Shown here: one piece after another, positions 2,733-22,419 of the stretch
How the letters are laid out: every line of letters starts with the position of its first letter
Numbering within the stretch: the first letter of the stretch is position 1
Source: a virus
Direction: 5' to 3' (one strand)
IMG/VR virus record: IMGVR_UViG_3300028790_000101
Coordinates: 1 to 22,478 of that record
Length of the DNA: 22,478 nt
The notes under the pieces: model-generated
What the model was told of the DNA's origin: nothing
The model's input: only the letters and a program-made list of their open reading frames with translations
Databases searched by the model: none
Program-made: the position numbers and the translations under genes

Positions 2733-2778
2733 GCACCGTCTCCAATGCGACCGCGCTCGAGCATTCGCGCGACGTCGG

Positions 2779-5916: not shown

Positions 5917-5965
5917 GATCGCTTGCGTCCTTTGTGCTCGTATCGCGGCGTAAAACCGCACCGTC

Positions 5966-5985: not shown

Positions 5986-6083
5986 AACATGGCGGCAAAC
6001 AATGACCGTCTGCGCTGGACATAGCTTGACGATTACGCGACAAAAGCGCGGCTTTCCATCCGGCGCTTGGCACATCTTGCAAA

Positions 6084-7756: not shown

Positions 7757-8172
7757 TTGGGCACCCGTGGCTCTTCGTCGGACGCGACGAGTGGAACGTC
7801 GATCATCTCGGACACTCCCTCGCTCAGCGCGTCCGCGCGTCCGGCTGGAACGATAGCCACCACCTGCCCGACTGCGCGAGCGACAACGAGGTCGCAGCCA
7901 CACTCATCGAAGAACACCGGCTCAAGCGATCCCGCGTCACTGCGCAGCCAGGCAGCGATCTCTCGGACCATCAGCGTGCCGCCAGGTGAACCGCTGTCGT
8001 CTTCCTCGATGATCGGTTCACCTTTGATGAACACTCGCCAGCCGCGTGCCGCGCCGATCAGCATCTCTGGCTGCGCTGCGATGCGGTGCGCCCGGTGCGA
8101 TGTTCGAATGCGAAGGTCCTCGACGAGCTTGTCTCGCACCCCGTCCCGCGTTTTTCGATCGCTCTCCGACAT
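7753..8172 (-). CDS. Hypothetical protein, first gene of a coupled trio
   Basis: The 139-residue protein begins MSESDRKTRDG. The ATG at 8172 has GGGAGG six bases upstream, a strong ribosome site. The N-terminal third is charged and helical. The middle alternates strands (RGWRVFIKGEPIIEEDD) and the C-terminal half contains CGCDLVVARAVGQVVAIVPAG. I do not recognise a family. It leads a leftward group of three genes with overlapping stop and start codons, so the three are probably expressed at a fixed ratio. Confidence 0.65.
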   Translation of the reverse strand: MSESDRKTRDGVRDKLVEDLRIRTSHRAHRIAAQPEMLIGAARGWRVFIKGEPIIEEDDSGSPGGTLMVREIAAWLRSDAGSLEPVFFDECGCDLVVARAVGQVVAIVPAGRADALSEGVSEMIDVPLVASDEEPRVPN

Positions 8173-8675
8173 GGCTTGCCTCCCGTGGTCGACGCGACCA
8201 CTACCGCAGACACGCCGCGCGACGAAGAAAGCGGAGCGCGCGCGAGCACGCGCTGCAGACCGGCGCCCCAAGCTCGTATCGCCGCGTCTCGTGCGTCCGG
8301 CGCTCCGAGCTGGAGACGAAGCGGCGCGGCACCGAGACTGCGCGCGTTTGCGCACCTGGCCATTTCGGTTGGCCAGTTTCTGGCGAAGTGCGCCGAGATC
8401 CTGCCGCGCTGCGCTTGACGGGCGACGTGGGCGAGGGGGGAGGTCAAGCCGATGAGCGAGGTGATCGGTTCGCGGTTCGAGAATCAGGACAGGAGGCTAC
8501 GCGGCCCTCGCCCGCACCAGCAGCGCGGCGAGGACCAGCACGTCACCCGCAGCTCAGCCATCCGGCCGCGCGAAGTCGGCCGACGTTGCCTGTCAATCGT
8601 TCGAACGCAGGGCGAGCTGAGAAGTTGGACCAGCGCATCGCCGCACCCATCATCGGGCGCAAGCAAGGGGATGCG
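8173..8675. other. Divergent intergenic region, no firm gene
   Basis: About 500 bases lie between the leftward trio and the rightward 8676 gene. All six frames are open in places because of the GC content, but none looks coding. One candidate is a 78-codon frame at 8452-8688 with a strong GGGGGGAGG ribosome site, yet its product is Arg/Ser-rich and unlike a folded protein; it could be a coupled leader peptide or a decayed gene. The region must hold promoters for both directions, but I could not identify them. Confidence 0.4.
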
Positions 8676-9188
8676 ATGGAACAGATAGACTATGACGAGT
8701 TCCTCCAGAAAATCGCGGTCGCCACAATCGCAGTCCTTCAGGAGAATCCCGATGACGTCAACGCTGTGGAACGCATCTCAGAGCGCTCAGGTTTTCCTGT
8801 GGCACACGTGAGACAAGTCTTGGGCGACGTCTGGGGCTTCCAAGGCACGTTCGGCGGCGGCCTCATGTACACCAGCTTCGCAATGGAAAAGGTGTTCGCA
8901 GCCTCCACGTCGGTTCGGATCTGTAGGCATGAGGGTTCGAAAAACGTCGTCAATGTGCACGGAGGAACTGGGGTGCAGGCCGCAGCAGGCGGGAACGTTT
9001 TCGGTACGCAGTCGATCACGATCACGGGGCAGGACGCATTCAATGCCCTCGAGCAAACGATTGAAGCCTCCTCCCTCGCACCGGAGACGAAGGCGGAGGC
9101 TCGCAGTCTACTTCGGCGCGCATGGGACCTCGCCGGTCCGACGATCGTCAAGACCGCTATCGAACTGTCGACAAAGCAGCTGCTCTGA
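8676..9188 (+). CDS. Unknown wHTH-like protein with a Gly-rich strand module
   Basis: The 170-residue protein starts at the ATG at 8676, behind AAGGGG. Residues 1-60 look like a small winged-helix or helical domain (DEFLQKIAVATIAVLQENPDD, then VNAVERISERSGFPVAHVRQVLGDVWGF). Then comes a Gly-rich strand segment (VVNVHGGTGVQAAAGGNVFGTQSITITG), and the last 55 residues are helical (NALEQTIEASSLAPETKAEARSLLRRAW). A GNxFGTQ strand followed by an alternating acidic helix is a pattern I associate with bacterial hypothetical proteins, some near defence genes, but no family is assigned. It opens a rightward accessory cluster ending at 10721 and may be a morphogenesis-independent cargo gene. Confidence 0.65.
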   Translation: MEQIDYDEFLQKIAVATIAVLQENPDDVNAVERISERSGFPVAHVRQVLGDVWGFQGTFGGGLMYTSFAMEKVFAASTSVRICRHEGSKNVVNVHGGTGVQAAAGGNVFGTQSITITGQDAFNALEQTIEASSLAPETKAEARSLLRRAWDLAGPTIVKTAIELSTKQLL

Positions 9189-9303
9189 GATGCGCCTACT
9201 TGCCGGCCAGCATGCGCTCGAACGCCATCTTGGGCGCGAACGGTGGAAAGGTGGCAACCGCCAACATGGTGTTGTTGGTGGAGCGCGCCGAGAGACCGCA
9301 AGC

Positions 9304-9339
9304 GCAGTTGAACAGTTGAAGTGTGCAACTGAACTGGCG
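9304..9339 (+). repeat. Hairpin repeat, copy 1 (degenerate)
   Basis: The core AGTTGAAGTGTGCAACTG differs at one base from the core of copies 2 and 3. It is followed after a short gap by copy 2, and similarity between copies 1 and 2 extends into the flank (GGCCGCTC at 9347-9354 and at 9397-9404), so they look like an imperfect tandem duplication of about 54 bp. Confidence 0.55.
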
Positions 9340-9356
9340 GCGTCGAGGCCGCTCAG

Positions 9357-9392
9357 GCAGTTGCGGAGTTGAAGTCTGCAACTGGCGTTGAC
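9357..9392 (+). repeat. Hairpin repeat, copy 2
   Basis: These 36 bases match 16120-16155 at 33 positions. Both contain AGTTGAAGTCTGCAACTG. The flanks pair as an inverted repeat (CAGTTGCGGA with TCTGCAACTG, one G-T pair). Translated forward they give AVAELKSATGVDS, close to AVAELKSATALDG in the antirepressor-like protein. Confidence 0.6.
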
Positions 9393-9695
9393 TCGCGGCC
9401 GCTCGAGCCGACGTGGCACTCGTCAGCGAGCCCCGCAATCGCCGCTGACGCTCGTGAAACGTCGACAACGACCGAGGTCAACCACCGCGACTGCTGGTCG
9501 GCGCGAGTTCCGCAGCGCCGGCCTGCGCAGGTGGCAGCGTGGACTTGGCTACCTGGCGCACCTGCCACCGCGTAGTTTGCTGGCGGAGTCAAGAAACCGT
9601 ACACAGGGCTCGCGATGCCTCGGCTACGATCGTCATCGTGCCTTCGGTCTGCGATGTGCTGCTGTAGGATTCACGCCGCCATCTACGCAGAAGCG

Positions 9696-9724
9696 TTGGC
9701 GGTCCTTGATCTCTAGATTACATT
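9696..9724 (+). promoter_or_regulatory. Putative sigma70 promoter
   Basis: TTGGCG (9696-9701) and TACATT (9719-9724) are separated by exactly 17 bases. The stretch around the -10 is unusually AT-rich for this window. It ends 16 bases before the ATG at 9741, so the leader would be very short. Confidence 0.45.
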
Positions 9725-9740
9725 ACGATGAGAACAAGCC

Positions 9741-9932
9741 ATGGCACAGGATAGCACCGGCAAGTCGAAGTCTGAGGAGTCCCCACCGAGGGTCGAGAGG
9801 CCACGCCCATTGACGTTGACGCCTGACCAAGTGCGCGAAGGCTGGGTCATCAAGACGCAGGGCGGCATGCAGGTCAAGGTCTTGGATCTCCGGCAGATCG
9901 AGACCGTGCGGTTGACGCCCAAGAAGGGCTGA
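9741..9932 (+). CDS. Small hypothetical protein (63 residues)
   Basis: A short, charged protein: the first 25 residues are Ser/Glu/Pro-rich and probably disordered, followed by LTPDQVREGWVIKTQGGMQVKVLDLRQIETVRL, which looks like a small beta domain. The ATG at 9741 is preceded by a promoter-like sequence at 9696-9724; the ribosome site is weak. It ends 24 bases before the membrane protein gene at 9957 and is likely co-transcribed with it. No family recognised. Confidence 0.55.
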   Translation: MAQDSTGKSKSEESPPRVERPRPLTLTPDQVREGWVIKTQGGMQVKVLDLRQIETVRLTPKKG

Positions 9933-9956
9933 AGAGCCCGCCCATTGGGAGCCCGA

Positions 9957-10721
9957 TTGGACAAGGGTCTCCTCTACGGCGGCCAGCTTGGCAGCCTGGC
10001 AGCGGCTACAGTTGCCGGTCTGAGCGAGGCCTACGAGATGCGGGACGCGATGGCTTCGGGCTTAGTGCTTGCGCTTGCCGGGCAGCTCACGTCGTTCCTG
10101 GGCGGGCACCGCATTTCGCGTGCCAGCGCCGAAGCTCTACTGGACGAGCACGATCGGATTGCGCGGGCTGTTGTGCGCTTCATCGCGCAGAAGTGCTTTC
10201 GCGTGCCCCCTCCGGGCACCGTCCTAAGGGTTCCGCCGTACCGGGCTACTGCCCTCATGCCGGACGTGTCAGACCAGGCGATCACACCGCGCTGGCGCGC
10301 GTATTCCGGTGAGCAAGTCACGAAAGCGAACTCGAAGGTGTCGTTCGCCAGAGGCGATCAGCTGGCTGGCTTCTCTTGGAATGCGGACGACGCCAACCAC
10401 CTACAGATCCGCGACAACCTGCCAACCGTTGGCGACATGGGGAATGACGTGAATGCCTGGAGAGCCGAGTGGATGGCCGAGGGGGTGCCGAGCCGAGTTC
10501 TCGAACACATGGGCAGCGACGACTCGCGGGGATACCGCTACATGGAGCACGTGCGCTCCATCCTCTGCTTCCGAGTGAACGTGGGCAAGTGCTGCATGGT
10601 GATCGCGATCGACAGCACCCTGCCGAGTGCGTTCGATTCCGCCAACCTTATTCTGGGGCGAGCGATCGGGGAGACCATTGCGCTTGCCCAGTTCGTCGGA
10701 GAGCAGGTCGTCGCGGGGTAG
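9957..10721 (+). CDS. Membrane protein with a GAF-like C-terminal domain
   Basis: About 254 residues. The N-terminus has one or two weakly hydrophobic segments (YGGQLGSLAAATVAGL and AMASGLVLALAGQLTSFLGG). The C-terminal 60 residues, YRYMEHVRSILCFRVNVGKCCMVIAIDSTLPSAF in blocks, follow the strand pattern of GAF sensor domains, where a late strand usually ends in x-D-S/A. The middle is soluble. TTG at 9957 is chosen as start because GGGAG lies 5 bases upstream; another TTG at 9945 is possible. With the 63-residue protein upstream it forms a small rightward operon. A membrane-anchored sensor, perhaps in host defence or superinfection control, is an inference from domain style. Confidence 0.6.
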   Translation: MDKGLLYGGQLGSLAAATVAGLSEAYEMRDAMASGLVLALAGQLTSFLGGHRISRASAEALLDEHDRIARAVVRFIAQKCFRVPPPGTVLRVPPYRATALMPDVSDQAITPRWRAYSGEQVTKANSKVSFARGDQLAGFSWNADDANHLQIRDNLPTVGDMGNDVNAWRAEWMAEGVPSRVLEHMGSDDSRGYRYMEHVRSILCFRVNVGKCCMVIAIDSTLPSAFDSANLILGRAIGETIALAQFVGEQVVAG

Positions 10722-10790
10722 AACTGGAGTCACGCGCGCCGACGAGGCTCGCCCATTGTCGTCATCGCATCCACGCGTGGCCGCAACGTC

Positions 10791-10985
10791 TCAGTTCCCG
10801 ATCCGCTCCATGGACTCGACGCCGTTGGTCTTGAGGGCGAAGTCCTTCGGGCGAACGACGACGATGAGCTGGCCTTCGCTGAGGTCGTTGTCGATGGTCT
10901 CGAGCCGGCTATTGATGCGCTCCCACTACCCGCGGGCACTCGACGTGATCCGATAGCGACCGGGCTGGATGATTCGCCGCCTCAG
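10791..10985 (-). pseudogene. Gene remnant with an in-frame TAG
   Basis: Reading leftward, one frame gives IIQPGRYRITSSARG, then TAG (10928-10926), then WERINSRLETIDNDLSEGQL, continuing IVVVRPKDFALKTNGVESMERIGN to a TGA at 10791. The sequence on both sides of the TAG looks like real protein with mixed helix and strand. It is too short to be whole and has no start. It appears to be the 3' end of a decayed gene of unknown family. The rest of 10722-11061 shows nothing else. Confidence 0.5.
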
Positions 10986-11061
10986 CGCTGGCCTGGAGCG
11001 TCTCAACACGATGCACGTCGCGGTGCTGGGCTCCCGTCGCCAACCTCGCGGCGTGCTGACG

Positions 11062-11475
11062 TCACCAGTGGAGCACGACGGGCGTGGTTGCCACGGGCCT
11101 TGCCGATGCTCGGGTGTGCTTGCGCTTCGCGAGCCATACGCCCCCTGACACCAGGAGGGCGACGGCAGCGCTCGCGAGTACGCAGGTGACGACACTCACC
11201 TGGAGTCGTCGGTCTTGCCGCTCGTGGGGGTCGGTGCACGCGGCGTCTCGGCACTGCTCAACCTCACGCGCCCGCTGGTGTCCGACGTAGGCGCTGCCGA
11301 GCGACGTCGCCGCGAGCAGGGAGCCGGTGAAGAGCAACGCACGCGGGCCCCGCAGGGCACTCGCCTCTTCCGTGCGGTCCCAGACCTGCTCTATCGAAAG
11401 GTCCGCCGCTTGCGCCAGCGATGGTTCGAGCGCCATGAGGAAGAACGCGATCCACAGCCATCCTGCCAAACGCAT
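11062..11475 (-). CDS. Exported small membrane protein, two TM helices
   Basis: A 137-residue protein. It has a signal-peptide-like start (MRLAGWLWIAFFLMALEPSLAQA), a hydrophobic segment ALLFTGSLLAATSLGSAYV around residues 47-65, a Cys-containing loop (EQCRDAACTD) and a second segment SVVTCVLASAAVALLVSGGV followed by basic residues. It ends in PVVLHW. The ATG at 11475 has GAGG six bases upstream; a longer start at 11511 is less likely. Proteins of this style are frequent in Myxococcota genomes and are often of unknown function. It stands alone between gene remnants, so it is probably cargo picked up from a host. Confidence 0.65.
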   Translation of the reverse strand: MRLAGWLWIAFFLMALEPSLAQAADLSIEQVWDRTEEASALRGPRALLFTGSLLAATSLGSAYVGHQRAREVEQCRDAACTDPHERQDRRLQVSVVTCVLASAAVALLVSGGVWLAKRKHTRASARPVATTPVVLHW

Positions 11476-11834
11476 GCTCGACCTCGATGCAGACCCCGTG
11501 GGCCCCGCCACCAGTTGTCCACGTGCTATCGCGCGTGCCTCGGGCTGTGCAACTCTGCGTCACCCGTATCGCCTTGGTTTCGGTTCGCAGCAGACGCCGC
11601 AAGCCGGCGCCCGGTGAGCCGGCTCGCAGCTCTCATCCTTCATCGCGAGACCACGCCCAGTCTTGGTAGATCGAACATTCGACCCCGGGTGCGCGATCAA
11701 TAGGGCGTGCACGGCGTCACACCCCTCGACGACGCGTGAGCGGGCGTGCTCGTCGCCTCCTGAGGTGCATGGGGATTGTGACCCTCCCGCGCCTCTCCGA
11801 TCCTCGCCCATCGCGAGGCGCGTCCGACCGACCG

Positions 11835-12018
11835 ATGGCCATCATCAAAGCCAGCGCGCGTCGCCATCGACCAGCTGGCGCGGCAACACACAACCGTCAT
11901 CGTCATGTGCTCGAGTGTGGCCGACTCCGCCTACACCGTCAGGACGTCGCTCTCCGAGCACCTACCCTCAGCTTGGCGCGTCATCGACATGCACGAGGTG
12001 CTTCGGGGTCGAGGTTGA
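11835..12018 (+). pseudogene. Frameshifted gene fragment
   Basis: An ATG at 11835 gives MAIIKASAR. After a GCGCGCG run near 11856 the coding appearance moves to another frame: RVAIDQLARQHTTVIVMCSS, then VADSAYTVRTSLSEHLPSAW and RVIDMHEVLRGRG to TGA at 12018. The second part is protein-like and its frame has no start of its own. A slip in the GC repeat would join the two pieces into a product of about 60 residues. It could be a real mutation or a sequencing error; no family is recognised. Confidence 0.35.
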
Positions 12019-12074
12019 GGCCCGCGTCTTTCTTCGCCCATGTGCGTGCTCCGGCGACGCAGCCAGCACCGTTG
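12017..12074 (-). repeat. Duplicated 3' end of a lipoprotein gene, copy 1
   Basis: These 58 bases match 13306-13363 at 53 positions. Copy 2 encodes the C-terminus of the lipoprotein at 13303-13755 (ARCVAGACTSARKDAGL then stop). Copy 1 read in the same frame gives AGCVAGARTWAKKDAGL, but a one-base deletion removes the stop. It is a remnant of a related gene. Confidence 0.65.
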
Positions 12075-12194
12075 TAAAAGTGACTAAATGCAGTGTGAAC
12101 TGCGCTTCATTCGTGCGCCCGGGCATGCTTCCTGCTGTTCGTCCGCTTGGCACGTGCGGCGGCACAACTTGGCGCGCGCCTTGGAGTGGACGTT

Positions 12195-12875
12195 ATGCAA
12201 CACACAAGATGGGTGGCGGTTGGTCTCATGGCGTTGTTCGCGCAGATTGCCTCGACGAGCTGCACCGACGAGCACACAACGGACGTCGATCTTCGGGACT
12301 GCGGCAACCTCGACCTCCTCGCATGCGCTCAAGCGAGCGGCTGCGAGGTGCGTGCCGGGAGTCTGGTGGACGAAGCGCAGCAGTGCATCGGCCAGAACGC
12401 GCCCGTCGGTTGTATGACGAGCGTGGCTCGTCGGGGAGGCTGTGACGACGCCATCGGGTACGTTCGAGACCGTCAGGGACGCCTCTGGAGGTTTAGCGAT
12501 CTGTGTCTCCCCGAAGGATTGGAGCCAGTCCAGGACCAGGACGCGTGGACTCGCTGGGAATCATGTGACGTGCCCGTCGCAACCCCTGACATGCCCTGCG
12601 CGAGTCTCTCGGTTGGCGGCTGCCTTCGCGCTACGCACTGCAGTGTGGTCGAGGCACGTTTTGTCGTGCAACACCGTGAGTGCGTCGAGGACGAGCTCGT
12701 GGAGCTTGCCTGCGCCGACGCCACACAAACCTGTGAGCCTGGATTGGGCTACGGACGCGATGGTCAGGATCGCGTTTGGCAGTTCTTGAACCGCTGTGTA
12801 CCGCCGCGCTTTCAAGTCGTTATGCCGACGGCTGCGCAGCCTTGGAGCAACTGGGGATCCTGCAGTCGTTCGTGA
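12195..12875 (+). CDS. Cys-rich lipoprotein with two tandem repeats
   Basis: A 226-residue predicted lipoprotein. It has a signal peptide MQHTRWVAVGLMALFAQIAS with a Cys at residue 23 (STSC) for lipidation. The mature part holds two related domains of about 85 residues, each starting C-x-x-L and carrying C-L/A-x-A-x2-C, then GYxRDxQxRxWxFxxxC and ending W-x2-W-x-S-C. The regular cysteines suggest disulphides outside the cytoplasm. The ATG at 12195 has GGAG eight bases upstream. This style of protein is typical of Myxococcota surfaces; the role is unknown. As cargo of a phage-like element it could modify the host surface. Confidence 0.75.
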   Translation: MQHTRWVAVGLMALFAQIASTSCTDEHTTDVDLRDCGNLDLLACAQASGCEVRAGSLVDEAQQCIGQNAPVGCMTSVARRGGCDDAIGYVRDRQGRLWRFSDLCLPEGLEPVQDQDAWTRWESCDVPVATPDMPCASLSVGGCLRATHCSVVEARFVVQHRECVEDELVELACADATQTCEPGLGYGRDGQDRVWQFLNRCVPPRFQVVMPTAAQPWSNWGSCSRS

Positions 12876-13302
12876 CTTGGCAGTCGGCCTTCGAGACCCG
12901 AGTAGCTCCTCCTCATTGTCGACTGGCGTCGTGTATGCGAACACGCGCACCGCCGGCGTCGAGCCAAGGCCGAGGCTGCGGAGCAGAAGCGCCTCGCGCG
13001 CAACGAGTACACGCCCGCCAGGCGCGCGCAGCAGACCCAGCAGGAGGCTCCCCACGCGCCTTCGCGCCGCAAGCGCCCCACGGACATCGAGACCGTCGAG
13101 GCGCCCGACACTGCGCCTGTGATCCCGCACGGCAGCACGCTCCTGTGCCTCGCAGCTCGATTGAACCGGGAGTGCATGCGGTACCGGGTCGTGACGCTGG
13201 TGGTGGCGGGGCTGGTGGCGTGCGGCGTGGCGGACGTGGCGGTCATGTGAATCTCGAGCGCTGTGACCAGCTGCGCGTTGGTGATGCCCATCGGTGTCGC
13301 GG
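12876..13302. other. Region with remnants, no intact gene
   Basis: A forward frame from about 12904 to 13250 reads VDWRRVCEHAHRRRRAKAEA, then AEQKRLARNEYTPARRAQQT and on through RKRPTDIETVEAPDTAPVIPHG. It looks coding but has no ATG or GTG start with a ribosome site and no recognised family. Its end overlaps a truncated lipoprotein leader (13176-13250). The stretch looks like the joined ends of decayed genes. Confidence 0.4.
13176..13250 (+). pseudogene. Truncated lipoprotein leader
   Basis: ATG at 13176, behind CGGGAG, gives MRYRVVTLVVAGLVACGVAD, a compact lipoprotein signal with a LVAC lipobox, but the frame stops at 13250. The next frame continues with HVNLERCDQLRVGDAHRC, the Cys-containing style of a mature lipoprotein. 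A frameshift just after the lipobox would join them. It looks like a fifth, broken lipoprotein gene. Confidence 0.4.
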
Positions 13303-13755
13303 TTAGAGGCCCGCGTCTTTCCTCGCCGATGTGCATGCTCCGGCGACGCAGCGAGCATCGTTGGGAACGCATGATGGGGATGCTCGGCAATCAGTCGGGA
13401 TGAGCGGGCACAGTTCGGCTTCGAGCGCCTGTTCAAATGCGAGGCCGGCATCGACGTTGGCGATCGCAATCGGGTAAGGGCAGTCCGTTATGCTGATGCC
13501 CCTAGACGGACACTCTAGCCGCGGCAACGAGGAGAGAGTGCAGTCGGAGTCGACCGAACAGCTGCGTAGACTGACCATAACTGGATCTCTAAAGAGCCGC
13601 TTAGAAACGGCTTCAGCGGCCGCTTGGCACGTTGCGAAGGAGCCTCCGTCGACGCCGCCGTCGAGCTGCGAGCGGTCCGAGGAATCGTCATCGCACGCAG
13701 CACTCCATCCGACCAGGACGACAACCATTCCAGTAAGCAGCTTCTGTGATCGCAT
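13303..13755 (-). CDS. Predicted lipoprotein, Cys-rich
   Basis: A 150-residue protein with signal peptide MRSQKLLTGMVVVLVGWSAA and Cys at 21 followed by DDDSSD, a clear lipobox. Acid residues after the Cys usually accompany outer-surface lipoproteins in Gram-negatives only in some groups, so final location is open. A DGGVDGG linker is followed by a mature domain with eight cysteines, including CSVDSDC. GGAG lies seven bases before the ATG at 13755. It is 70 bases downstream of another lipoprotein gene on the same strand and probably in one operon. The last 58 bases are duplicated at 12017-12074. Function unknown. Confidence 0.75.
   Translation of the reverse strand: MRSQKLLTGMVVVLVGWSAACDDDSSDRSQLDGGVDGGSFATCQAAAEAVSKRLFRDPVMVSLRSCSVDSDCTLSSLPRLECPSRGISITDCPYPIAIANVDAGLAFEQALEAELCPLIPTDCRASPSCVPNDARCVAGACTSARKDAGL
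13306..13363 (-). repeat. Duplicated 3' end of a lipoprotein gene, copy 2
   Basis: This is the intact partner of 12017-12074, lying within the lipoprotein gene just before its stop codon. There are five mismatches in 58 bases. The two copies are in the same orientation about 1.3 kb apart and enclose another lipoprotein gene, so recombination between them could delete that gene. Confidence 0.65.
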
Positions 13756-13825
13756 TGTTTTCTCCGGATTGCCGGTTGATCCGGCAGAAATCGAGGCACG
13801 TACCGAGTCCATCGCGAGCAGCACG

Positions 13826-14392
13826 TCAGCGCTTTCGATCGCAGTACAGCACCGAGGCGTCGGGGCACGGCGGCGTGATCACGCCCGCCACGAACGCGTG
13901 ATCCTCACACGAGGAGCCGGTGATGCGAAGTGGGACGTCGTTATACCGTCCCGCGCCGACCAGGGCTCCGCCGTCGAGCGTGAAAGTGTAGTAACCCCCT
14001 GCCAGTCTGAGCGCGGGCGAGTGAACCTGCGCGAACCCGCAGCCTTCGGCCCGTGCCAAGTGATCCTGCGGATTGATCGGCACGCCGGCGTCTCCTGCAT
14101 CGGCGCCCATCACCGACGCATCCAGCGACACGGCTCGGCACGTCGCCCGCTCAATGAGATCCGCTTCGGAGGCTGGACAACCGGTCTGGCAGAACGTGGC
14201 GAGTGAGACGTACGAAGCGACGCCTCCCCCGGCATCGTACGCGGGGGGCTCGAGATGGCGATACGGCTGCTTTGGACACGAAGTCGAGGTCGCTTCGTCG
14301 TCGTCGCCACACGCGGCTGTCCGCGCCAGCCATGCCAAATCGACGATGCGAAGCGAAATGGATTGTGAATGCCTAAAGTGCGGCGCGCGCAT
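13826..14392 (-). CDS. Predicted lipoprotein, Asp/Cys-rich
   Basis: 188 residues. The N-terminus reads SLRIVDLAWLARTAACGDDDE, with Cys at 28 in a lipobox-like AAC, but the hydrophobic stretch is interrupted by Asp and Arg, so the signal may be damaged or the start misjudged. The mature part has paired cysteines (TSCPKQP, FCQTGCPAS, ATCRA, EGCGF, SSCED, PPCPD, LYCD), an ADAGDAG linker and a strand-rich section (GGYYTFTLDGGALVG). It is followed on the same strand by the 13303-13755 lipoprotein. Family not recognised; composition is typical of Myxococcota surface proteins. Confidence 0.65.
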   Translation of the reverse strand: MRAPHFRHSQSISLRIVDLAWLARTAACGDDDEATSTSCPKQPYRHLEPPAYDAGGGVASYVSLATFCQTGCPASEADLIERATCRAVSLDASVMGADAGDAGVPINPQDHLARAEGCGFAQVHSPALRLAGGYYTFTLDGGALVGAGRYNDVPLRITGSSCEDHAFVAGVITPPCPDASVLYCDRKR

Positions 14393-14469
14393 GTGGTGAG
14401 GATAACCGGCCTGTCGCCCTGCTCGCCTCTTTTCGAGTTCGTGGCGTCGCGTCCGCCCGGTTCATGGGC

Positions 14470-14682
14470 TCAGCGCCTCTTCGCTGACTTCGATGCGGGT
14501 GTCGCGCACTCTCGCTCAAGCTGATCTAGGCCGCGCACCAGAGCCATGCGCAGCACTTCAGAGCGCACCGGGGCTCCAGATGCCCTTCCGCTGTCGAGCT
14601 GGGCAAGCGCCGGGATGAGCCGGTCGGCGCGGTCGAGAATCGCCTGCGGTACTCGTAGGCCGGTCATTGCTGACTTGGTCAT
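14470..14682 (-). CDS. Ribbon-helix-helix DNA-binding protein
   Basis: A 70-residue protein with LRVPQAILDRADRLI followed by RSEVLRMALVRGLDQLE, the strand-helix-helix pattern of CopG/Arc-type repressors, and a basic tail. GGAGGGGG precedes the ATG at 14682. It begins 16 bases after the stop of the serine resolvase and is on the same strand, so it is likely co-transcribed and may regulate the resolvase operon. It could be an antitoxin, but no toxin-like partner is adjacent. Confidence 0.7.
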   Translation of the reverse strand: MTKSAMTGLRVPQAILDRADRLIPALAQLDSGRASGAPVRSEVLRMALVRGLDQLERECATPASKSAKRR

Positions 14683-14698
14683 GTCGTCCCCCTCCTGA

Positions 14699-15412
14699 TC
14701 AGACTGCAACGGCGCCCAGGCGCTCGAGCAAGCGCCGCACGGTCGTTCCATGCCAGCGCTTGCCGCGGGCCGGAAAGCCCTCTTCGTTCAAGACGTCGGC
14801 AATGCCGTTCGCGTAAAAGCCAGCATCGCGCAGCTCGCAGATGCGAGTGAGCACCGCCTGCTCAGCTGCATTCGTTACCAGCTGCTTGCCATCGTCGCGC
14901 ACTCCGAAGCCGATCGGCACGGTGCCAAGACGCTCGCCACGACTGCGCTTGATGGCGAGAGCCGCCGTCGTGCGGCGCTGAATGAGCGCGCGCTCGTACG
15001 CTGCGAAGGCGTCGACCATCACCGCCATGAGGGCACCTTCCGCGCCTTCGGTGCTGCCCACGCCATCAGCGGAGACGATCCGCGCGCCCTTGCTCTGCAC
15101 GAGCCGCTCGACGGTGGCGGCGATCACCACGTCGCGCGCGAGGCGGTCGCGCTTGGCCACCACGAGAATGCCGGCGTTGGACGTCTCAAGCGCAGCGAGT
15201 GCCTCGATCAGCGCCGGACGATCCGCCAGTTCGGCCCCACCAGACACGCCGACGTCGCGGTGCACCGAAACGACGTCGATGCCCTGAGCGCCTGCCCAGC
15301 GCTGAACGGCGGCGAGCTGCGCCTCAGGGCCGAGCTGCTGATCGTCGGTGCTGACACGTAGGTAACAGACGGCGCGTTTCGGATCGGTGCTGGGCTTGGT
15401 ACGGCGAGCCAT
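14699..15412 (-). CDS. Serine recombinase (resolvase/invertase family)
   Basis: A 237-residue small serine recombinase. The catalytic Ser is S21 in YLRVSTDDQ. The KRDRLARD motif at 87-94 supplies active-site Arg residues, and the E-helix AYERALIQRR is at about 138-147. After residue 160 comes a C-terminal HTH part (GFYANGIADVLNEEGFPARG, then KRWHGTTVRRLLERLG) similar to the start of the Recombinase domain in phage serine integrases but much shorter. The ATG at 15412 has no clear ribosome site; the upstream frame is open but not protein-like. In an element with its own tyrosine integrase, this enzyme more likely resolves dimers or inverts a segment. The repeats at 15434-15488 could be its site. 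Confidence 0.88.
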   Translation of the reverse strand: MARRTKPSTDPKRAVCYLRVSTDDQQLGPEAQLAAVQRWAGAQGIDVVSVHRDVGVSGGAELADRPALIEALAALETSNAGILVVAKRDRLARDVVIAATVERLVQSKGARIVSADGVGSTEGAEGALMAVMVDAFAAYERALIQRRTTAALAIKRSRGERLGTVPIGFGVRDDGKQLVTNAAEQAVLTRICELRDAGFYANGIADVLNEEGFPARGKRWHGTTVRRLLERLGAVAV

Positions 15413-15433
15413 GAGAGCGATCGTATCCGTCGA

Positions 15434-15488
15434 TGCACCACGCTTGCACCACAGATGCGACGCGTTGGTAAGGACGTCAACGTGTTGG
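15434..15488. repeat. Paired direct repeats upstream of the resolvase
   Basis: TGCACCAC occurs at 15434-15441 and 15445-15452 (11 bp apart), and CGCGTTGG/CGTGTTGG at 15461-15468 and 15481-15488 (20 bp apart). They fill the gap between the winged-helix gene and the resolvase start, where a res site or operator would be expected. TGCACCAC is one base short of the integrase arm motif TGCTACCAC, possibly by chance. Confidence 0.35.
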
Positions 15489-15554
15489 CTGCCCATGTGG
15501 CTCGAAGTACTACCGCGTTGAGCTGGTCGGTGCGCCCGCCCGTGACTGCTGCGC

Positions 15555-15836
15555 TCAGGCGACGAGCCAGTAGTAGCGGCGGGCCTGCCGGATCTGCGTG
15601 TCGCTCGGCGCTGGAAAGAAGAGATCTGACTCTGCGAGCCCATCGCGCTCGAGCGATTGGAGCGCGTGCCTGGTCTCGCGCACGCGCATTGCTCGGTCGC
15701 TCCCCGAGAGTGAGTCGGCGACTTCGCCAACGTAGCTACGGCCATGAACGGCCAGGTACGCGAGCACATGCGATCGCACGCGCGCCTGGCGACGGGCGAT
15801 TCCCTGCAGAGTCTGCTTGATCTGCGCCGTAGGCAT
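15555..15836 (-). CDS. Winged-helix DNA-binding protein
   Basis: A 93-residue protein. After a helical start, RSHVLAYLAVHGRSYVGEVA, then DSLSGSDRAMRVRETRHALQ and SLERDGLAESDLFF fit a winged helix: two helices, recognition helix and wing, with a final aromatic strand (RRYYWLVA). It is probably a transcription regulator. The ATG at 15836 lacks a strong ribosome site. It is 142 bases upstream of the resolvase and on the same strand, with direct repeats between. Family not assigned. Confidence 0.65.
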   Translation of the reverse strand: MPTAQIKQTLQGIARRQARVRSHVLAYLAVHGRSYVGEVADSLSGSDRAMRVRETRHALQSLERDGLAESDLFFPAPSDTQIRQARRYYWLVA

Positions 15837-15963: not shown

Positions 15964-16326
15964 ATGCGGGCGGCTCGCGCAGCGCACGCGCGCTGTTCGA
16001 GCCCCATCCAAGCGGTGCGCGGCGACGGCGAGCAGGTATGGGTGGTGGTCAAGCGGGTATGTGAGGCGCTCGGACTCGACGAAACCGGGCAGCGCCGGAA
16101 GCTTGCTGACAAGGCATGGGCAGTTGCAGAGTTGAAGTCTGCAACTGCCCTTGACGGGAAGGCTTACGAAACGCTCTGCCTCTCGCTGGACTCGCTGCCC
16201 ATGTGGCTGGCCACCATCGACGTGAAGCGTGTCAAGCCTGAAGTGCAGCCGAAGCTCATCGCTGCTCGTTGGGCCATCGCCAGCTCGGTCGCAGCCGCGA
16301 AGTCGTGCCCTCGGTGCCGTCGGTGA
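15964..16326 (+). CDS. P22-type antirepressor N-terminal domain protein (short form)
   Basis: Up to 120 residues. EQVWVVVKRVCEALGLDETG, QRRKLADKAWAVAE, LCLSLDSLPMWLATIDVKRV and KPEVQPKLIAARW match the order of the phage antirepressor N-terminal domain (P22_AR_N/BRO-N-like). These proteins block phage repressors. The usual C-terminal domain is missing, and the first 20 residues are Ala/Arg-rich with no good ribosome site, so the gene may be truncated at both ends. A perfect 13-bp hairpin (16118-16150) sits in the coding sequence. It reads opposite to the flanking winged-helix gene and ends 12 bases before the lipoprotein at 16339. Confidence 0.7.
   Translation: MRAARAAHARCSSPIQAVRGDGEQVWVVVKRVCEALGLDETGQRRKLADKAWAVAELKSATALDGKAYETLCLSLDSLPMWLATIDVKRVKPEVQPKLIAARWAIASSVAAAKSCPRCRR
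16118..16150 (+). repeat. Perfect hairpin inside the antirepressor gene (repeat copy 3)
   Basis: GGGCAGTTGCAGA and its exact complement TCTGCAACTGCCC are separated by the loop GTTGAAG. The surrounding 36 bases (16120-16155) match 9357-9392 at 33 positions. In frame it encodes the middle of the antirepressor domain without changing the expected spacing of the family. Confidence 0.65.
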
Positions 16327-16902: not shown

Positions 16903-17586
16903 TCACGCGCCCTTCACCTTCTTAGCCGCGGTCGACAACACCGAGCCGCCCAGGATGCCGCCCACAGTCGTGCCGGACTGCGTGGTGGAGCTGCCCGCAG
17001 TGGTCACCGTGTGGGTGTGCCCATGGATGGCAGCCTCGATGGCCTTCTCGACCAGCGGAGCGAGCGCCAGGGCCAGCGCGCCAGCCTCGCCGCCGAGCAC
17101 CACCGTCCCATCTGGTTTGATGCGGATGGTGGCATCCGTCTTGAGGTTGCCGATCACGATGTCCGTCGCGCTGACGTTGGTGAGCTTCAACTTGTCGGGG
17201 TACCAACCGGGCCTGGCCATACAGCCATTCAAGCCGTGAGGCATGGAGATGCCTGGTGGGCTGACCTCGCCCTTGTCGCGCCAGACCAGCGTCGACTGCT
17301 CGGCGCACTGGACCTCCACGAAGTCGCCGGGCTTGATGGGCAGCGCGAAAGCTTGATCGCCAGAACGCGGCCACTGCACCGGCACGTCGTAGAGCGTTGG
17401 CAGCGTCTCGTACCCAAGCGCACCCTCGTCGTCTTGCAGCTCGCGCATCAGCTGCGGCTCGACGTCGACCGTCTGCGCCGCGACGTCGTACGCGAGCACG
17501 CGCGCAGGGAAGCACGTGTGCAGGCTGCGGCGACCGGCTCGAAGTACGGCGTCGAGGGCCTCGCGCTGGGTGGGCGTCGTGCTCAT
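16903..17586 (-). CDS. Gp138-like spike/baseplate protein, copy 2
   Basis: 227 residues. The N-terminal 120 residues match the phage Gp138 N-terminal (baseplate V/spike OB-fold) type: HTCFPARVLAYDVAAQTVDV, LPTLYDVPVQWP, PIKPGDFVEVQCAEQSTLVW and PHGLNGCMARPGWYPD. Then come a strand repeat region (ATIRIKPDGTVVLGG) and a C-terminal part with GHTHTVTTAG. Such proteins form the trimeric membrane-piercing tip of contractile or short tails. It is a tandem duplicate of the next-listed gene, 9 bases downstream of its stop. Its C-terminal tail differs from the other copy, so the two may form different tips or a hetero-assembly. Confidence 0.8.
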   Translation of the reverse strand: MSTTPTQREALDAVLRAGRRSLHTCFPARVLAYDVAAQTVDVEPQLMRELQDDEGALGYETLPTLYDVPVQWPRSGDQAFALPIKPGDFVEVQCAEQSTLVWRDKGEVSPPGISMPHGLNGCMARPGWYPDKLKLTNVSATDIVIGNLKTDATIRIKPDGTVVLGGEAGALALALAPLVEKAIEAAIHGHTHTVTTAGSSTTQSGTTVGGILGGSVLSTAAKKVKGA

Positions 17587-17595
17587 CCAATGTCC

Positions 17596-18267
17596 TCACT
17601 TCACTCGGGCGCTCTCGGCGCCGACGTCGGGGGTGCTCTCGTAAGGCTTCGTGAACGTCGCCGGGGCCCCGGCGCCGCCAGTCAGCGATGCCAGCGTTGC
17701 CTTGATGGCCTTCAGCTCGGCCTCGACCTTGTCGGCGCGAGCAATGGGATGGGCGCCGTCGACCGTGCCCAGCACGATGGTGCCGTCGGCTTGGATGCGA
17801 ACCGAGGCGCTTCCATCGAGTTTGCCGATCACGAGGTCCGTGGTGCTGATGCTCTCGAGCTTCTCGGCGTCAGGGAACCACCCAGGAATCGCCACGCAGC
17901 CGTTGAGGCCGTGCGGGTCGTTGAGCCCTGGATGGGCAGGAGCATCTCCGCGCGAGCGCCACAGCATCGTCGACTGCTCGGCGCAGAGCACCAGCACCCA
18001 GTCGCCAGGCTCGACAGGCAGGAGCACGCCGTACTTGCTCGTGCGCAGGGCCATGAAGGGGACATTCAGCAGATCGGGCAGCTGCTCGAAGCCCCACGGC
18101 TCTGACGGCTCGTCGTTCGGCACTTCCCGAAGCAGTGCCGGGCGCACATCCACCGTCTGCGCGTCGGCGTCGTAGGCGAGCACGCGCGCAGGGAAGGCCG
18201 TGTGCAGTTCGGCGCGCATGTCGGAAAGCACGCGGTCGATCACCTGCCTCGGACTCGGCGCAGTCAT
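17596..18267 (-). CDS. Gp138-like spike/baseplate protein, copy 1
   Basis: 223 residues with the same domain order as the downstream copy: HTAFPARVLAYDADAQTVDV, LPDLLNVPFMAL, PVEPGDWVLVLCAEQSTMLW, PHGLNGCVAIPGWFPD and ASVRIQADGTIVLGT. It ends in a helical, charged tail without the HTHT segment. The start at 18267 overlaps the upstream stop as ATGA. Upstream lies a 92-residue protein that also carries a DGT-type strand repeat. Together these three make up the only tail-like genes I see. Proteins of this family occur in Mu-like and related phages. Confidence 0.8.
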   Translation of the reverse strand: MTAPSPRQVIDRVLSDMRAELHTAFPARVLAYDADAQTVDVRPALLREVPNDEPSEPWGFEQLPDLLNVPFMALRTSKYGVLLPVEPGDWVLVLCAEQSTMLWRSRGDAPAHPGLNDPHGLNGCVAIPGWFPDAEKLESISTTDLVIGKLDGSASVRIQADGTIVLGTVDGAHPIARADKVEAELKAIKATLASLTGGAGAPATFTKPYESTPDVGAESARVK

Positions 18268-18542
18268 GACAGCTCCTTCGGCGGCTCAGTATCCGAGAAG
18301 TCTCTCTCACGCATCTTGCGGTCGACGACCTTCACGCTCTCCGCACACGTAAGGAGACACCCCTGCATCGTCGCGATGGCACGGCTGATCACCTCACGAG
18401 GATGGAGGCCTTTGACGCCGCGAGGGAAGGCCCCGACCACGGTGTGCGTGATGGTTCCGTCAGGAGCGATGCTCAAGACGGTGGTTCCGTCCTCGTGACG
18501 CACCTCGATGTTTTCAGGGTTGAACTTCAACTTGCCGGTCAT
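18264..18542 (-). CDS. Small protein of the spike operon
   Basis: 92 residues, starting MTGKLKFNPENIEVRHEDGT and continuing TVLSIAPDGTITHTVV. The two DGT turns resemble the strand repeats of the spike proteins encoded next (PDGTVVLGG, ADGTIVLGT), so it may belong to the tip or act as its chaperone. The C-terminal half is helical with two cysteines and a charged end. The ATG at 18542 is behind GAGGAGG; an upstream in-frame start at 18626 would run over the palindrome. The stop overlaps the next start (ATGA). Family not recognised. Confidence 0.65.
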   Translation of the reverse strand: MTGKLKFNPENIEVRHEDGTTVLSIAPDGTITHTVVGAFPRGVKGLHPREVISRAIATMQGCLLTCAESVKVVDRKMRERDFSDTEPPKELS

Positions 18543-18610
18543 GAGTCCTCCTCTGTGCGTCGGTTCGTCTTCTGGAGCTTCGTGGTCGCTCCCTCCGCGC
18601 GCGCCGCTGC

Positions 18611-18629
18611 CTTGTGAAGACTTCACAAG
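18611..18629. promoter_or_regulatory. Palindromic operator-like site
   Basis: CTTGTGAAG and its exact complement CTTCACAAG flank a single A, a 19-bp perfect palindrome. It is 69 bases upstream of the spike operon start (18542) and 87 bases after the terminase stop, where a late-gene control site would be placed. No clear promoter hexamers are seen. Confidence 0.5.
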
Positions 18630-18715
18630 CTCGCTTGCTCACCAATCGGCACACGCGTTCAACGGTCGGTGTTTCTGTCCGTATGCCGCCGCACTGGCCG
18701 GCTTCGGTGCCGCGC

Positions 18716-20200
18716 TCAGTCACGTGCCGCCTGCATCCACAGCTCGCTGCGTATCAGAGCGCTTTCGACTTCTCTGGTCGCGCTCCAAAGCATCGCGCAC
18801 GCGACGGCGACGTCTCCGTGCCGGCGAACCGTTCCCCCGTCCGCCTTCACAAGCACAGCGCTCGGAAGCTTCGGGATGCCCTGCACGCGCTTGACCGCCG
18901 TGAAGTCGGCGCGCACCTCTTCGTCGCTGGGGAGGCGGATCTTGCCCTCCTCAAACGCGGCGCGCAGGGGCGGCCAGCTCTCGAGATGCCATCGCTCGCC
19001 GATCTTCACTTCGACGACACGGCTTGTGCCGTACTTCTGTGCACAGACCTCTGCGAGGTAGGCGCCGTTGCCGGTCGCGTCGAAGTGAGCGCGCCGGAAC
19101 CTGGGCAGCTTGTCGAGCAGATAGAATGCGATCTGGCGCTGCTGCTCGAAGGGCACATTCGATAGCTCGATGAGAAACGGGACGTCACGTGTGAGATCAC
19201 TCTGCAGAGTCCCGGGCATCAGGACGCTCAAGTCGGAGGTCCGCCCAAAGTCAACGCCGAGAAAGTGCGTGCGGTCGCGTGGGAGCTTGGCGATGCATGG
19301 CCCGACTTCGGCTTCGAGCCAGTCGCGCACGTGCTGCTCTCTGTCGCGCTCAGGTCGCCCAGTGAACTCGCGCGGCAAGTAGAGGCGCAGCACAGGGCGG
19401 CCCATCACCATGCGGCTCTCGATGACGTCGCGGTTGAAGTACGTGAGGCCGCCGCGACTCGGAGCGCAGTCGAGTTCCTCGTCGGCGTTGTCGCCCATCT
19501 CCGCGCGAAGCTCCGCCTCCCACCGCCGCTCCGCCTCGGGCGACCATGCGCGGCCCTGGATCATGGCAATGCGCCGGTACAGTCCATCCGCCAGCGCAGC
19601 GCGCAGCGTGACCCGGTGGAGCGAGTGCGGCTTCTTGCCAGCTCGGATGTCCTCGATTAGCTGGTTGAAGGGGCTGTCGATGCCGTTGTGCGTGGAGATG
19701 ACCCACACCTGACCGCCCCACGTGAGAGTGGCGGTGGCTGCCTTAAGTAGGCCCTGCAGGTCGTCATGGAAGGCGGCCTCGTCGATGATGATCAGGCCCT
19801 GCTTGCCGCGCAGGTTCCGAGGCGCACTGGTCAGCGCCGAGATGCGCTTGCCCGATGGAAACGAGATCTGGAACGCCTTGACGCCTTCGAGCCTTCCGCC
19901 TTCGTCCCCGGGAAGAACCACCGTAGCGTACGCGCCAGCAAACACGTTGAGCGTGCGTGCCGCCTTCTCGCATTCGAGGATGAACTCCTTGGCGCCATCC
20001 TCGTTGTACAGGATGTACCAGACGTCGAACTTACCCTGCGAAGCACGCAACACCGAGTGCACCGCGCTTGCGTACGTGATGCCTACGCGACGCCCTTTCT
20101 CGCAGACCCGGAAGTCCGAAGGGTCGAGCACCCAGCGCTGCTGGTAGGGCAAGAGCAGAGCATGCTCGGAGTACTCGGTGCGTGGGGTGTAGTCCTCCAT
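18716..20200 (-). CDS. terL: Terminase large subunit (Mu gp28-like)
   Basis: A 494-residue packaging motor. The ATPase half has a Walker A variant EKGRRVGIT (34-42), Walker B LIIIDEA (136-142) and the coupling motif STHNG (169-173). The RNase H-like nuclease half shows GVDFGR (D317), HFDATGNG (D374) and RRHGDVAVACAM (D463), the three metal-binding acids. Length and motif spacing are those of a complete enzyme. The ATG at 20200 follows GAGG and shares one base with the small-subunit stop (TAATG). In most phages a portal gene follows; here the next genes are the spike group. An intact terminase suggests that the element directs packaging of its own DNA. Confidence 0.9.
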   Translation of the reverse strand: MEDYTPRTEYSEHALLLPYQQRWVLDPSDFRVCEKGRRVGITYASAVHSVLRASQGKFDVWYILYNEDGAKEFILECEKAARTLNVFAGAYATVVLPGDEGGRLEGVKAFQISFPSGKRISALTSAPRNLRGKQGLIIIDEAAFHDDLQGLLKAATATLTWGGQVWVISTHNGIDSPFNQLIEDIRAGKKPHSLHRVTLRAALADGLYRRIAMIQGRAWSPEAERRWEAELRAEMGDNADEELDCAPSRGGLTYFNRDVIESRMVMGRPVLRLYLPREFTGRPERDREQHVRDWLEAEVGPCIAKLPRDRTHFLGVDFGRTSDLSVLMPGTLQSDLTRDVPFLIELSNVPFEQQRQIAFYLLDKLPRFRRAHFDATGNGAYLAEVCAQKYGTSRVVEVKIGERWHLESWPPLRAAFEEGKIRLPSDEEVRADFTAVKRVQGIPKLPSAVLVKADGGTVRRHGDVAVACAMLWSATREVESALIRSELWMQAARD

Positions 20201-20703
20201 TAGTCGCCTCGATGGAGCGGCACCACTTCGCAGCCCTGGGCAGTATCCTCCGCTTCACGCGGTTCGTGCGCTTCACGGTCGCGCTCGCCGAGCAGCGCCT
20301 TGCGCATGAGCTGGTCGGCGGCCTCATCCGAAAGCGCGAACGACGCGTTGAGGGTCTCGATGGGCCGCCCGTCCGCACCCGTGTGCTCGATCCGCGCCTT
20401 GTCGCCGTACAGGTCCGGGCGGAACGCCTTCAGCAACTTGAACGCTGTGTTCACGTCCCCCGCTCGTGCTGCCTTGATGAGGCCCAGCGTCAGCTCCGTG
20501 TTGCGCTTCGCGGCGGCGCGCTCGACCTCGTACCAGAGCGTGGCGAAGGGCTCCTCTCCAGCAAGCGCCTGGCGGCGCCATTCGTAGAACGAGCTTCGAG
20601 AGACGCCTTCCGCAGTGAAGGCGGTGAGCTCGTCCAGGCCGAGGGCGACGAGGTGCGTAATACGCGCCTGGAGTTCCTCGGTGAGCTTGCTCGTTCTACC
20701 CAT
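20200..20703 (-). CDS. terS: Terminase small subunit
   Basis: A 167-residue DNA-recognition subunit. MGRTSKLTEELQARITHLVA and VSRSSFYEWRRQ form an N-terminal HTH, followed by a long helical section (ERAAAKRNTELTLGLIKAAR) and a charged C-terminal tail that likely contacts the large subunit. LLKAFRPDLYGDK is a characteristic end of the helical core in this type. It overlaps the large subunit gene by one base. The repeats at 20904-21008, some 200 bases upstream, would be a natural place to look for its recognition site. Confidence 0.82.
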   Translation of the reverse strand: MGRTSKLTEELQARITHLVALGLDELTAFTAEGVSRSSFYEWRRQALAGEEPFATLWYEVERAAAKRNTELTLGLIKAARAGDVNTAFKLLKAFRPDLYGDKARIEHTGADGRPIETLNASFALSDEAADQLMRKALLGERDREAHEPREAEDTAQGCEVVPLHRGD

Positions 20704-21018: not shown

Positions 21019-22419
21019 TCACTCGTCCCCGCTGCGGCGGTCGTCGGACACCGCTCGGAGGCCGATTCCGAGGTAAAGCCGACCGCTTGCACGCTCGACG
21101 CGTTGATAGCCGCGCGCGACGAGCTCAGCCCCAAACTCGTTCGCGCTCACGGCGCGCTGGCCCCCGTCTTCACACCAGCGCTTGTAGGATGCGTACAGAA
21201 CACCCGCTTTGACCGTCGCAGGGGGCGTTTTGATGGTGTTTTCGCTCAGGAAGGAGGCGACCACATCCTCGCTTGCCCGATAGCTCTCGGTCTGCTCCCG
21301 AACGACAGCAGGCGCCGCAAGCCCTATGGTCGCCCACTCTCTTGCTCCTTCTACGATCCAACGCAGCACACCGGGCGCTTCCGCACGAATGGCATCCGCG
21401 AGCTGAGCGTCACGCCGCTCCTCGGGGATGACTACATCGAAGGGCACGAGCTGAACGCGCCGCCAGAGCGCAGCATCCGAGGCGTCTGCCCGCGGCTTGT
21501 AGTTCGAGAGCATCACAAGCTTGTGCGTCGGCGCGAACGTGAAGAAGTCCTGCCGCATCTGGCGCGCTGTGAGGCGGTCACCGCCTGTGAGCAGCTTGAC
21601 CTTGCTGGCGTCGAACCCAGCGCCTCGCTTCGTCTCATGGACGATGACGAGTCGAGAGCCGACGCATGAGGCCACATCGGTGGGGTGCGGCTCATGATTG
21701 CCCGTCTGCACGATGAGGCTGGCGGGACCAGGGCGCGCGTACGCGCCCAAAACGAACGTCACCACGTCCGCGAGCACGCTCTTCCCGTTGGCACCCGGCC
21801 CCCACAACACCGAAAGGACATGCTCGCGCACCACACCCGTTGCCGCATAGCCGAAGAGCCGTGCCAGGTAGCGCCGCACCTCCTGGTCTGGCTGCACCTC
21901 GTCGAGGAAGCGATGAAACGTTGGCGCTTGAGCCGACGGGTCGTATGCAACCGGGCATGTGCGTGTGATGAGATCGCTGCGGTCGTGCGCACGTAGGTCG
22001 CCGGATCGTAGGTCCACCACGCCATTGGCAACGTTCAGCGCATAGGGGTCGCGATTCGCATCATCGGGCAAGAACACCAGACCTGGCGTGCTGCGAGCAA
22101 GGTTCAAGATGGCCTCGACCCCTCCCGCCGATCCAGCGCGCTTTGCTGCCTTGAAGAGGTTCTGGTCCAGGCGCGTCGCCGCTTCTCCCGCGAGGGCGCG
22201 CGCGATGTTCTTGACGAGCTCGCGTGACTGCTCGACCTCATCCTGCACCCAATGGGTCCCCGTCCACGTGTGCCAGCCGCCGAGCTGCGCGCAGTAGCGA
22301 ACCTCGCTGCCATAGCGCTCTACAAGCCTCTCTGCGATGTCGAGTTCGGTCTGCTCCCCCTCCATCGGCTTCGGCTTTCGCCTGCGTGTCCCTGGAGACG
22401 GCATGTTCACGACTGTCAT
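21019..22419 (-). CDS. P4/D5-type SF3 replicative helicase
   Basis: 466 residues. The N-terminal 160 residues are D5_N-like (WHTWTGTHWVQDE, LNVANGVVDLRSGDL, ITRTCPVAYDPSA). The SF3 ATPase follows, with Walker A GPGANGKS (207-214), Walker B RLVIVHE (256-262) and motif C LVMLSN (301-306), then a C-terminal winged-helix-like part. Such hexameric helicases unwind origins of phages, satellites and plasmids. The ATG at 22419 follows GAGGG and overlaps the primase stop (ATGA). The upstream primase lies at the other end of the window, which shows that the sequence is circular. The primase function of P4-type fused proteins is here on the separate upstream gene. Its stop is followed by the 9-bp repeat arrays. 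Confidence 0.92.
   Translation of the reverse strand: MTVVNMPSPGTRRRKPKPMEGEQTELDIAERLVERYGSEVRYCAQLGGWHTWTGTHWVQDEVEQSRELVKNIARALAGEAATRLDQNLFKAAKRAGSAGGVEAILNLARSTPGLVFLPDDANRDPYALNVANGVVDLRSGDLRAHDRSDLITRTCPVAYDPSAQAPTFHRFLDEVQPDQEVRRYLARLFGYAATGVVREHVLSVLWGPGANGKSVLADVVTFVLGAYARPGPASLIVQTGNHEPHPTDVASCVGSRLVIVHETKRGAGFDASKVKLLTGGDRLTARQMRQDFFTFAPTHKLVMLSNYKPRADASDAALWRRVQLVPFDVVIPEERRDAQLADAIRAEAPGVLRWIVEGAREWATIGLAAPAVVREQTESYRASEDVVASFLSENTIKTPPATVKAGVLYASYKRWCEDGGQRAVSANEFGAELVARGYQRVERASGRLYLGIGLRAVSDDRRSGDE

What the first reader, a model, noticed from the sequence alone, without database searches (positions are those of the whole stretch)
16903..20703. Terminase plus spike but no capsid: candidate new phage satellite
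A complete TerS-TerL pair is followed directly by a spike module with two Gp138-like proteins. Across the whole circle I find no portal, capsid, protease, tail tube, tape measure or lysis gene. Known satellites differ: P4 and typical PICIs lack TerL, and capsid-forming PICIs bring head genes but not tails. An element that supplies its own full terminase and tail tip, and borrows the rest, would be a different hijacking plan. A defective phage with a deletion between terL and the spike genes is the main alternative.
Basis: partly seen in the sequence, partly recalled or inferred. Interest (0 to 1): 0.85.

Follow-up and report, generated by a model that had tools for sequence, protein, structure and literature searches.

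The report
Gutted temperate phage, possibly a proto-satellite
A 22-kb circular viral DNA keeps a phage's integration, DNA-copying and DNA-packaging genes plus two tail-spike genes but has lost all head and most tail genes; its nearest relative is an ordinary phage with those genes in the gap, so it is most simply a stripped-down, non-autonomous phage rather than a proven new kind of satellite.

Summary
On the minus strand TerS (20200-20703), an intact Mu-like TerL (18716-20200), a 120-aa ORF and two gp138-type membrane-piercing spike genes follow one another. No portal, capsid, protease, sheath, tape measure, hub, wedge or lysis gene was detected in the circle (about 22,346 bp; ends share 121 exact bases). 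The satellite interpretation is not established. The nearest relative, contig IMGVR_UViG_3300028790_000020 (TerL 65%, spike 73-78% identical), is an ordinary contractile-tail phage module: terL, portal, MuF, protease, capsid, sheath, tape measure, hub, spike, wedge. The window lacks that portal-to-hub block and everything after the spike. The next TerL relative (61%) also has portal directly after terL. Complications: the two spikes are closest to different phage lineages, a third spike survives only as a fragment, both spikes and TerL are intact and conserved, and the element keeps an integrase with a tRNA attP and a replication module. It could be a proto-satellite, but no second copy, helper or particle evidence was found.

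The parts
20200..20703 (-). terS, terminase small subunit (167 aa)
   Evidence: PHROG 4102 E=4e-15, phrog_309 E=5e-9
18716..20200 (-). terL, Mu gp28-like terminase large subunit (494 aa), intact
   Evidence: PHROG terminase large E=2e-28; 65% to G001, 61% to L177, 41-50% to Mu-like phages; differs from 8 of 77 conserved columns against 10 and 10 in its two phage relatives
18264..18626 (-). 120-aa ORF containing a spike-type repeat segment; probable fragment of a third spike gene
   Evidence: 59% over 27 aa to the spike gene of L281, E=2e-4; weak matches to spike a, 1/500 and 6/500 shuffles
17596..18267 (-). spike a, gp138-type membrane-piercing spike (223 aa)
   Evidence: PF18352 E=4e-10; closest to the spike of viral contig L171, 63%
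16903..17586 (-). spike b, gp138-type spike (227 aa), with HGHTHT near the C-terminus
   Evidence: PF18352 E=3e-16; 73-78% to the spike of G001; phi92 gp138 structure 3pqi E=1e-5 alone, 4e-10 by profile
21019..22419 (-). P4-family D5 primase-helicase C-terminal part (466 aa)
   Evidence: PHROG 6088 E=1e-121; TIGR01613 E=8e-86
70..1113 (-). probable primase N-terminal part (347 aa), upstream of the D5 gene across the circle junction
   Evidence: weak PHROG DNA primase match, E=0.007
1047..2807 (-). DEAD/ResIII-type helicase (586 aa)
   Evidence: PF04851 E=7e-32; PHROG 16 E=2e-83
3184..3471 (-). excisionase-like helix-turn-helix protein
   Evidence: PF12728 E=3e-11
4558..5961 (-). tyrosine integrase (467 aa)
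   Evidence: PHROG 1 integrase E=6e-21
6061..6135 (+). probable attP: the 3' 53 bases of a tRNA gene (6083-6135)
   Evidence: Rfam tRNA 30.3 bits with mispaired acceptor stem; bases 23-75 match genomic DNA in most of 195 genomes of the phylum of a Myxococcales MAG, best 90%
15964..16326 (+). anti-repressor N-terminal domain only (120 aa)
   Evidence: PF10547 E=2e-21; PHROG Ant matched over 25-103 of 317
14699..15769 (-). serine recombinase
   Evidence: PF00239 E=2e-30
6893..14751 (.). cargo region: unassigned ORFs, putative lipoproteins and membrane protein
   Evidence: no Pfam family above its cut-off; no structural family by PHROGs

Best explanation
This is a reduced, non-autonomous derivative of a temperate contractile-tail phage that carried a Mu-like terminase. 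Its ancestor had the order seen in the nearest relative: replication genes (inferred), terS, terL, portal, head genes, tail genes, hub, spike, wedge. The block from portal to hub, and everything after the spike, was lost; spike genes were left or re-acquired by recombination with related phages. Shown: gene content, gene order, intact terL and spikes, integrase beside a tRNA-type attP, replication genes co-oriented with terS-terL. Inferred: it integrates at a tRNA gene, can excise and replicate, and could spread only if a related phage supplied heads and tails, with its own TerS-TerL packaging its DNA. It may thus be a proto-satellite, but nothing shows that it has become an adapted one.
For: Nearest relative G001 encodes TerL (65% identical) followed by portal, MuF, protease, major capsid, tail terminator, sheath, tape measure, hub, spike (73-78% identical), wedge. 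L177, TerL 61%, has portal directly after terL and then MuF. Of 205 TerL loci with at least 3 kb downstream, 195 have a portal-sized ORF next and 8 of the other 10 match a portal profile. Spike genes elsewhere sit after a hub gene and/or before a wedge gene. Signs of erosion: partial spike ORF, anti-repressor reduced to its N-terminal domain, short repeated pieces. L373 has a truncated terL next to what looks like the capsid gene, an apparent independent deletion. No second copy of the arrangement.
Against: A single deletion does not give two spikes closest to two different phages (63% to L171, 74% to G001). At least two losses are needed. TerL and both spikes are intact, dN/dS 0.25-0.31 against nearest relatives, and TerL is as conserved as in its phage relatives, so decay is not evident in these genes. 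No remnant of portal or hub was found at the junction. G001 is a fragment and too divergent to be the parent.
Confidence: 0.6

Rival explanations
1. An established satellite that brings its own TerS-TerL and two spikes and borrows heads and the rest of the tail from a helper phage. TerL would dock on the helper's portal and package satellite DNA; the spikes would replace the helper's spike.
For: Integrase, tRNA attP, P4-family primase and helicase with conserved terminase and no head genes. Two intact spikes from different lineages, dN/dS well below 1. Size about 22 kb.
Against: No second copy or family found in viral contigs, nor a close TerL, integrase or spike in 195 genomes of the likely host phylum. 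No helper, capsid-size or interference gene recognised. The spike has no hub or wedge partner in the element. The nearest relative is simply a phage with the head and tail genes.
Confidence: 0.24
2. A domesticated remnant or integrative element in which the spikes and terminase are left-overs with no role in transfer, maintained for the cargo (putative lipoproteins, serine recombinase).
For: About 7 kb of cargo without phage families; fragmentary genes.
Against: Conserved TerL motifs and spike dN/dS well below 1; the overlapping ends suggest a circular form rather than a fixed chromosomal remnant.
Confidence: 0.1
3. Assembly artefact: a chimeric or collapsed circle joining pieces of different phages.
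For: The two spikes resemble different phages and the terminal repeat has one mismatch.
Against: Spikes a and b are only about 50% identical in protein and no long near-exact repeat at the junction was listed that could bridge an assembly. The ends overlap by 121 exact bases.
Confidence: 0.06

Closest known systems
Contractile-tail phage with Mu-like terminase, contig IMGVR_UViG_3300028790_000020 (G001)
   Same: TerL 65% and spike 73-78% identical, same relative orientation and order
   Different: has portal, MuF, protease, capsid, sheath, tape measure, hub and wedge between and after them; its replication side is not on the contig
Capsid-forming PICIs and the Streptomyces Mulch/Flayer satellites (PMC10690885)
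   Same: small helper-dependent elements with own TerS and TerL
   Different: those encode portal and major capsid; this element encodes neither but has tail spikes
P4-like satellites
   Same: P4-family primase, integrase, tRNA-type attachment site
   Different: P4 is packaged by the helper's terminase at its cos site (PMC10690885), while this element has its own TerS-TerL; Sid/Psu-type capsid genes were not recognised here
Defective prophages as proto-satellites (PMC11389934)
   Same: loss of structural genes with integration and packaging genes kept; the review proposes such elements as possible proto-hitchers
   Different: here the element is known only as a circular metagenome contig

Membership tests
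Capsid-forming PICI | own TerS and TerL | tested here: met
Capsid-forming PICI | major capsid, protease, portal and head-tail connectors | tested here: not met
   none by PHROG or direct search
Capsid-forming PICI | HNH endonuclease in packaging module | tested here: not met
   no HNH family among Pfam or PHROG matches
P4-like satellite | P4-family primase and integrase | tested here: met
   TIGR01613 E=8e-86; integrase
P4-like satellite | no terminase of its own | tested here: not met
   TerS and TerL present
PICI | packaging through the helper's large terminase, with own TerS at most, no TerL | tested here: not met
   own TerL present
Phage satellite in general | mobilised by a helper phage | not testable with these tools
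   needs induction and particle sequencing
Phage satellite in general | recurrent element distinct from complete phages | tested here: inconclusive
Defective (structurally deleted) phage-derived element | relative with intact module and the same flanking genes | tested here: met
   G001
Defective (structurally deleted) phage-derived element | missing genes required for virions | tested here: met
Mu-like phage TerL family | full-length terminase with conserved motifs | tested here: met
   69 of 77 conserved columns kept

The most novel reading that the evidence does not exclude
A satellite that supplies its own complete terminase and two alternative tail spikes, and borrows head, tail and baseplate from contractile-tail helpers, swapping the puncturing tip of the helper particle.
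Probability: 0.18. Interest if true: 0.8.

Novelty: new member of a known kind. Interest (0 to 1): 0.36.

Why it matters
If only a deleted phage, it is a useful snapshot of how satellites may begin: integration, replication and packaging kept, structure lost. If it is mobilised, it would be a hijacking plan (own terminase plus own spikes, no capsid) unlike the satellite families compared here, and would show that the puncturing tip can be a satellite's contribution.

Tried and rejected
Hidden portal or capsid in unassigned ORFs: not found by Pfam, PHROG or direct searches. Internal duplication as the source of the two spikes: rejected as the simple account, since each is closer to a different phage than to the other. 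ORF120 as a hub remnant: no similarity to hubs. Other portal-less TerL loci: of ten candidates eight have portals by profile, L142 has a portal-like ORF on the other strand (by eye, untested) and L373 is a truncated terL beside a capsid-like gene. Relatives of the integrase in viral contigs and in 195 genomes of the likely host phylum: none. Host assignment through a lipoprotein gene: no match. Literature searches for a satellite with TerL and spikes but no capsid: none recognised in the held library. The phylum searched from G003 was probably not the host's. No structure predictions were run; without homologues for the unassigned ORFs they were judged unlikely to be reliable.

Full report
What is there. 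The window is one virus record of 22,478 bp whose ends share 121 exact bases, so the molecule is probably a circle of about 22,346 bp. On the minus strand, running through the junction of the circle, lie helicase, a probable primase part, D5 primase-helicase, a small ORF, terS, terL, a 120-aa ORF, spike a and spike b. TerL belongs to the Mu gp28 kind, about 41-50% identical over its length to many Mu-like phage terminases. The two spikes carry the N-terminal domain of phi92 gp138, and their profile matches the solved structures of phi92 gp138 (3pqi), Pam3 gp20 and other baseplate spikes.

What is missing. Besides Pfam scans of 30 chosen ORFs, all 148 stop-to-stop ORFs of at least 95 aa were scanned against PHROGs. 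The 25 families listed were primases, helicases, integrases or an invertase, terminase subunits, anti-repressor, a transposase and unknowns. The tool listed 25 of 44 families; the per-protein scans account for nearly all the rest, so one weak match could have gone unseen. Searches with the eight structural proteins of the nearest phage found nothing in the window, while several of the same queries found homologues in other spike loci.

The nearest relative settles most of the question. Contig IMGVR_UViG_3300028790_000020 (18,507 bp, G001, locus L090) has a TerL 65% identical and a spike 73-78% identical. Its order is terL, portal (PF06381, E=2e-72), MuF, protease, major capsid (PF09950, E=6e-54), tail terminator, sheath, tape measure, hub, spike, wedge. 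About 14 kb lie between terL and spike. A second relative, L177, TerL 61% identical, has portal directly after terL and then MuF. In a tree of TerLs these two and the window form one group. Across 205 TerL loci with room downstream, 195 have a portal-sized ORF next and 8 of the other 10 a portal by profile; the loci are not fully independent. Spike relatives elsewhere follow a hub gene and/or precede a wedge gene. The window thus lacks the block from portal to hub, and the wedge and all that follows, around a pair of genes that in phages stand far apart. The simplest reading is loss of those blocks.

What the simple reading does not explain. The two spikes are not recent duplicates. Spike a is 63% identical to the spike of another phage contig (L171) and 50% to spike b; spike b is 74% identical to that of G001. 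In the annotated phage collection a spike b search matched 557 records at 559 places, so two detectable copies are rare. The ORF between terL and spike a contains a short segment matching the middle of spike genes in two bacterial genomes (59% over 27 residues, E=2e-4, in the better one), so it is probably a fragment of a third spike. I infer repeated recombination with related phages at this place. TerL departs from 8 of 77 conserved columns, its two phage relatives from 10 each, and dN/dS of terL and spikes against nearest relatives is 0.25-0.31. These values mostly reflect the long shared phage history and cannot date the loss, but they show no decay.

Life style. The integrase lies beside a stretch matching the 3' 53 bases of a tRNA gene, with mispaired 5' acceptor bases, as expected of an attP. 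That stretch matches genomic DNA in 139 of 195 genomes of the phylum of a Myxococcales MAG, best at 90%. This fits a Myxococcota host but does not prove it, since tRNA genes are widely conserved. Replication genes, integrase and terminase could suffice for integration, excision, copying and cutting of its own DNA; heads and tails must come from elsewhere if it moves. This is inference.

Recurrence. In 195 genomes of the likely host phylum no close TerL besides one 48% relative, no integrase relative, and only distant spikes, beside hub genes, were found. A recurrent family would be the main evidence for an adapted satellite, and it is absent so far.

Comparison. Capsid-forming PICIs and the Mulch and Flayer satellites bring terminase together with portal and capsid; P4 is packaged by its helper's terminase (PMC10690885). 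A review of such elements proposes defective prophages as possible proto-hitchers (PMC11389934). The window fits none of the tested satellite definitions and fits the last idea best. Verdict: observation confirmed, satellite claim unproven, deletion-derived proto-satellite most likely.

Noticed in passing
window 5967-5984 and 6187-6206: Pairs of a GCTACCAC motif on both sides of the tRNA-like core, looking like integrase arm-type sites.
   Followed up: no
window 9303-9392 and 16119-16155: A 37-base imperfect palindrome in three copies; the copy at 16119 lies inside the anti-repressor ORF and one at 9356 is 92% identical, perhaps a fragment of a second anti-repressor gene.
   Followed up: partly
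window 12017-12074 and 13306-13363: A 58-base repeat, 91% identical; one copy is the 3' end of a putative lipoprotein gene, the other stands without that gene.
   Followed up: partly
window 12147-14392 and 16339-16893: Several putative secreted or lipoprotein genes without family matches, unusual cargo for a phage.
   Followed up: partly
window 70-1113 and 21019-22419: The primase appears split into two ORFs across the circle junction.
   Followed up: partly
window 1047-2807: Helicase also matches restriction-enzyme helicase models in the defence library, best a type IV enzyme, E=2e-45; read here as a replication helicase.
   Followed up: no
L373:8990-11152: Another Mu-like viral contig with a truncated terL followed by what looks like the capsid gene, an apparent deletion of the portal region.
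   Followed up: partly
L302:7230-14974: In genome G020 of the same phylum, a tyrosine-recombinase-like ORF, D5 primase and a serine recombinase related to the window's lie within 8 kb with no terminase match, possibly another integrative element.
   Followed up: partly
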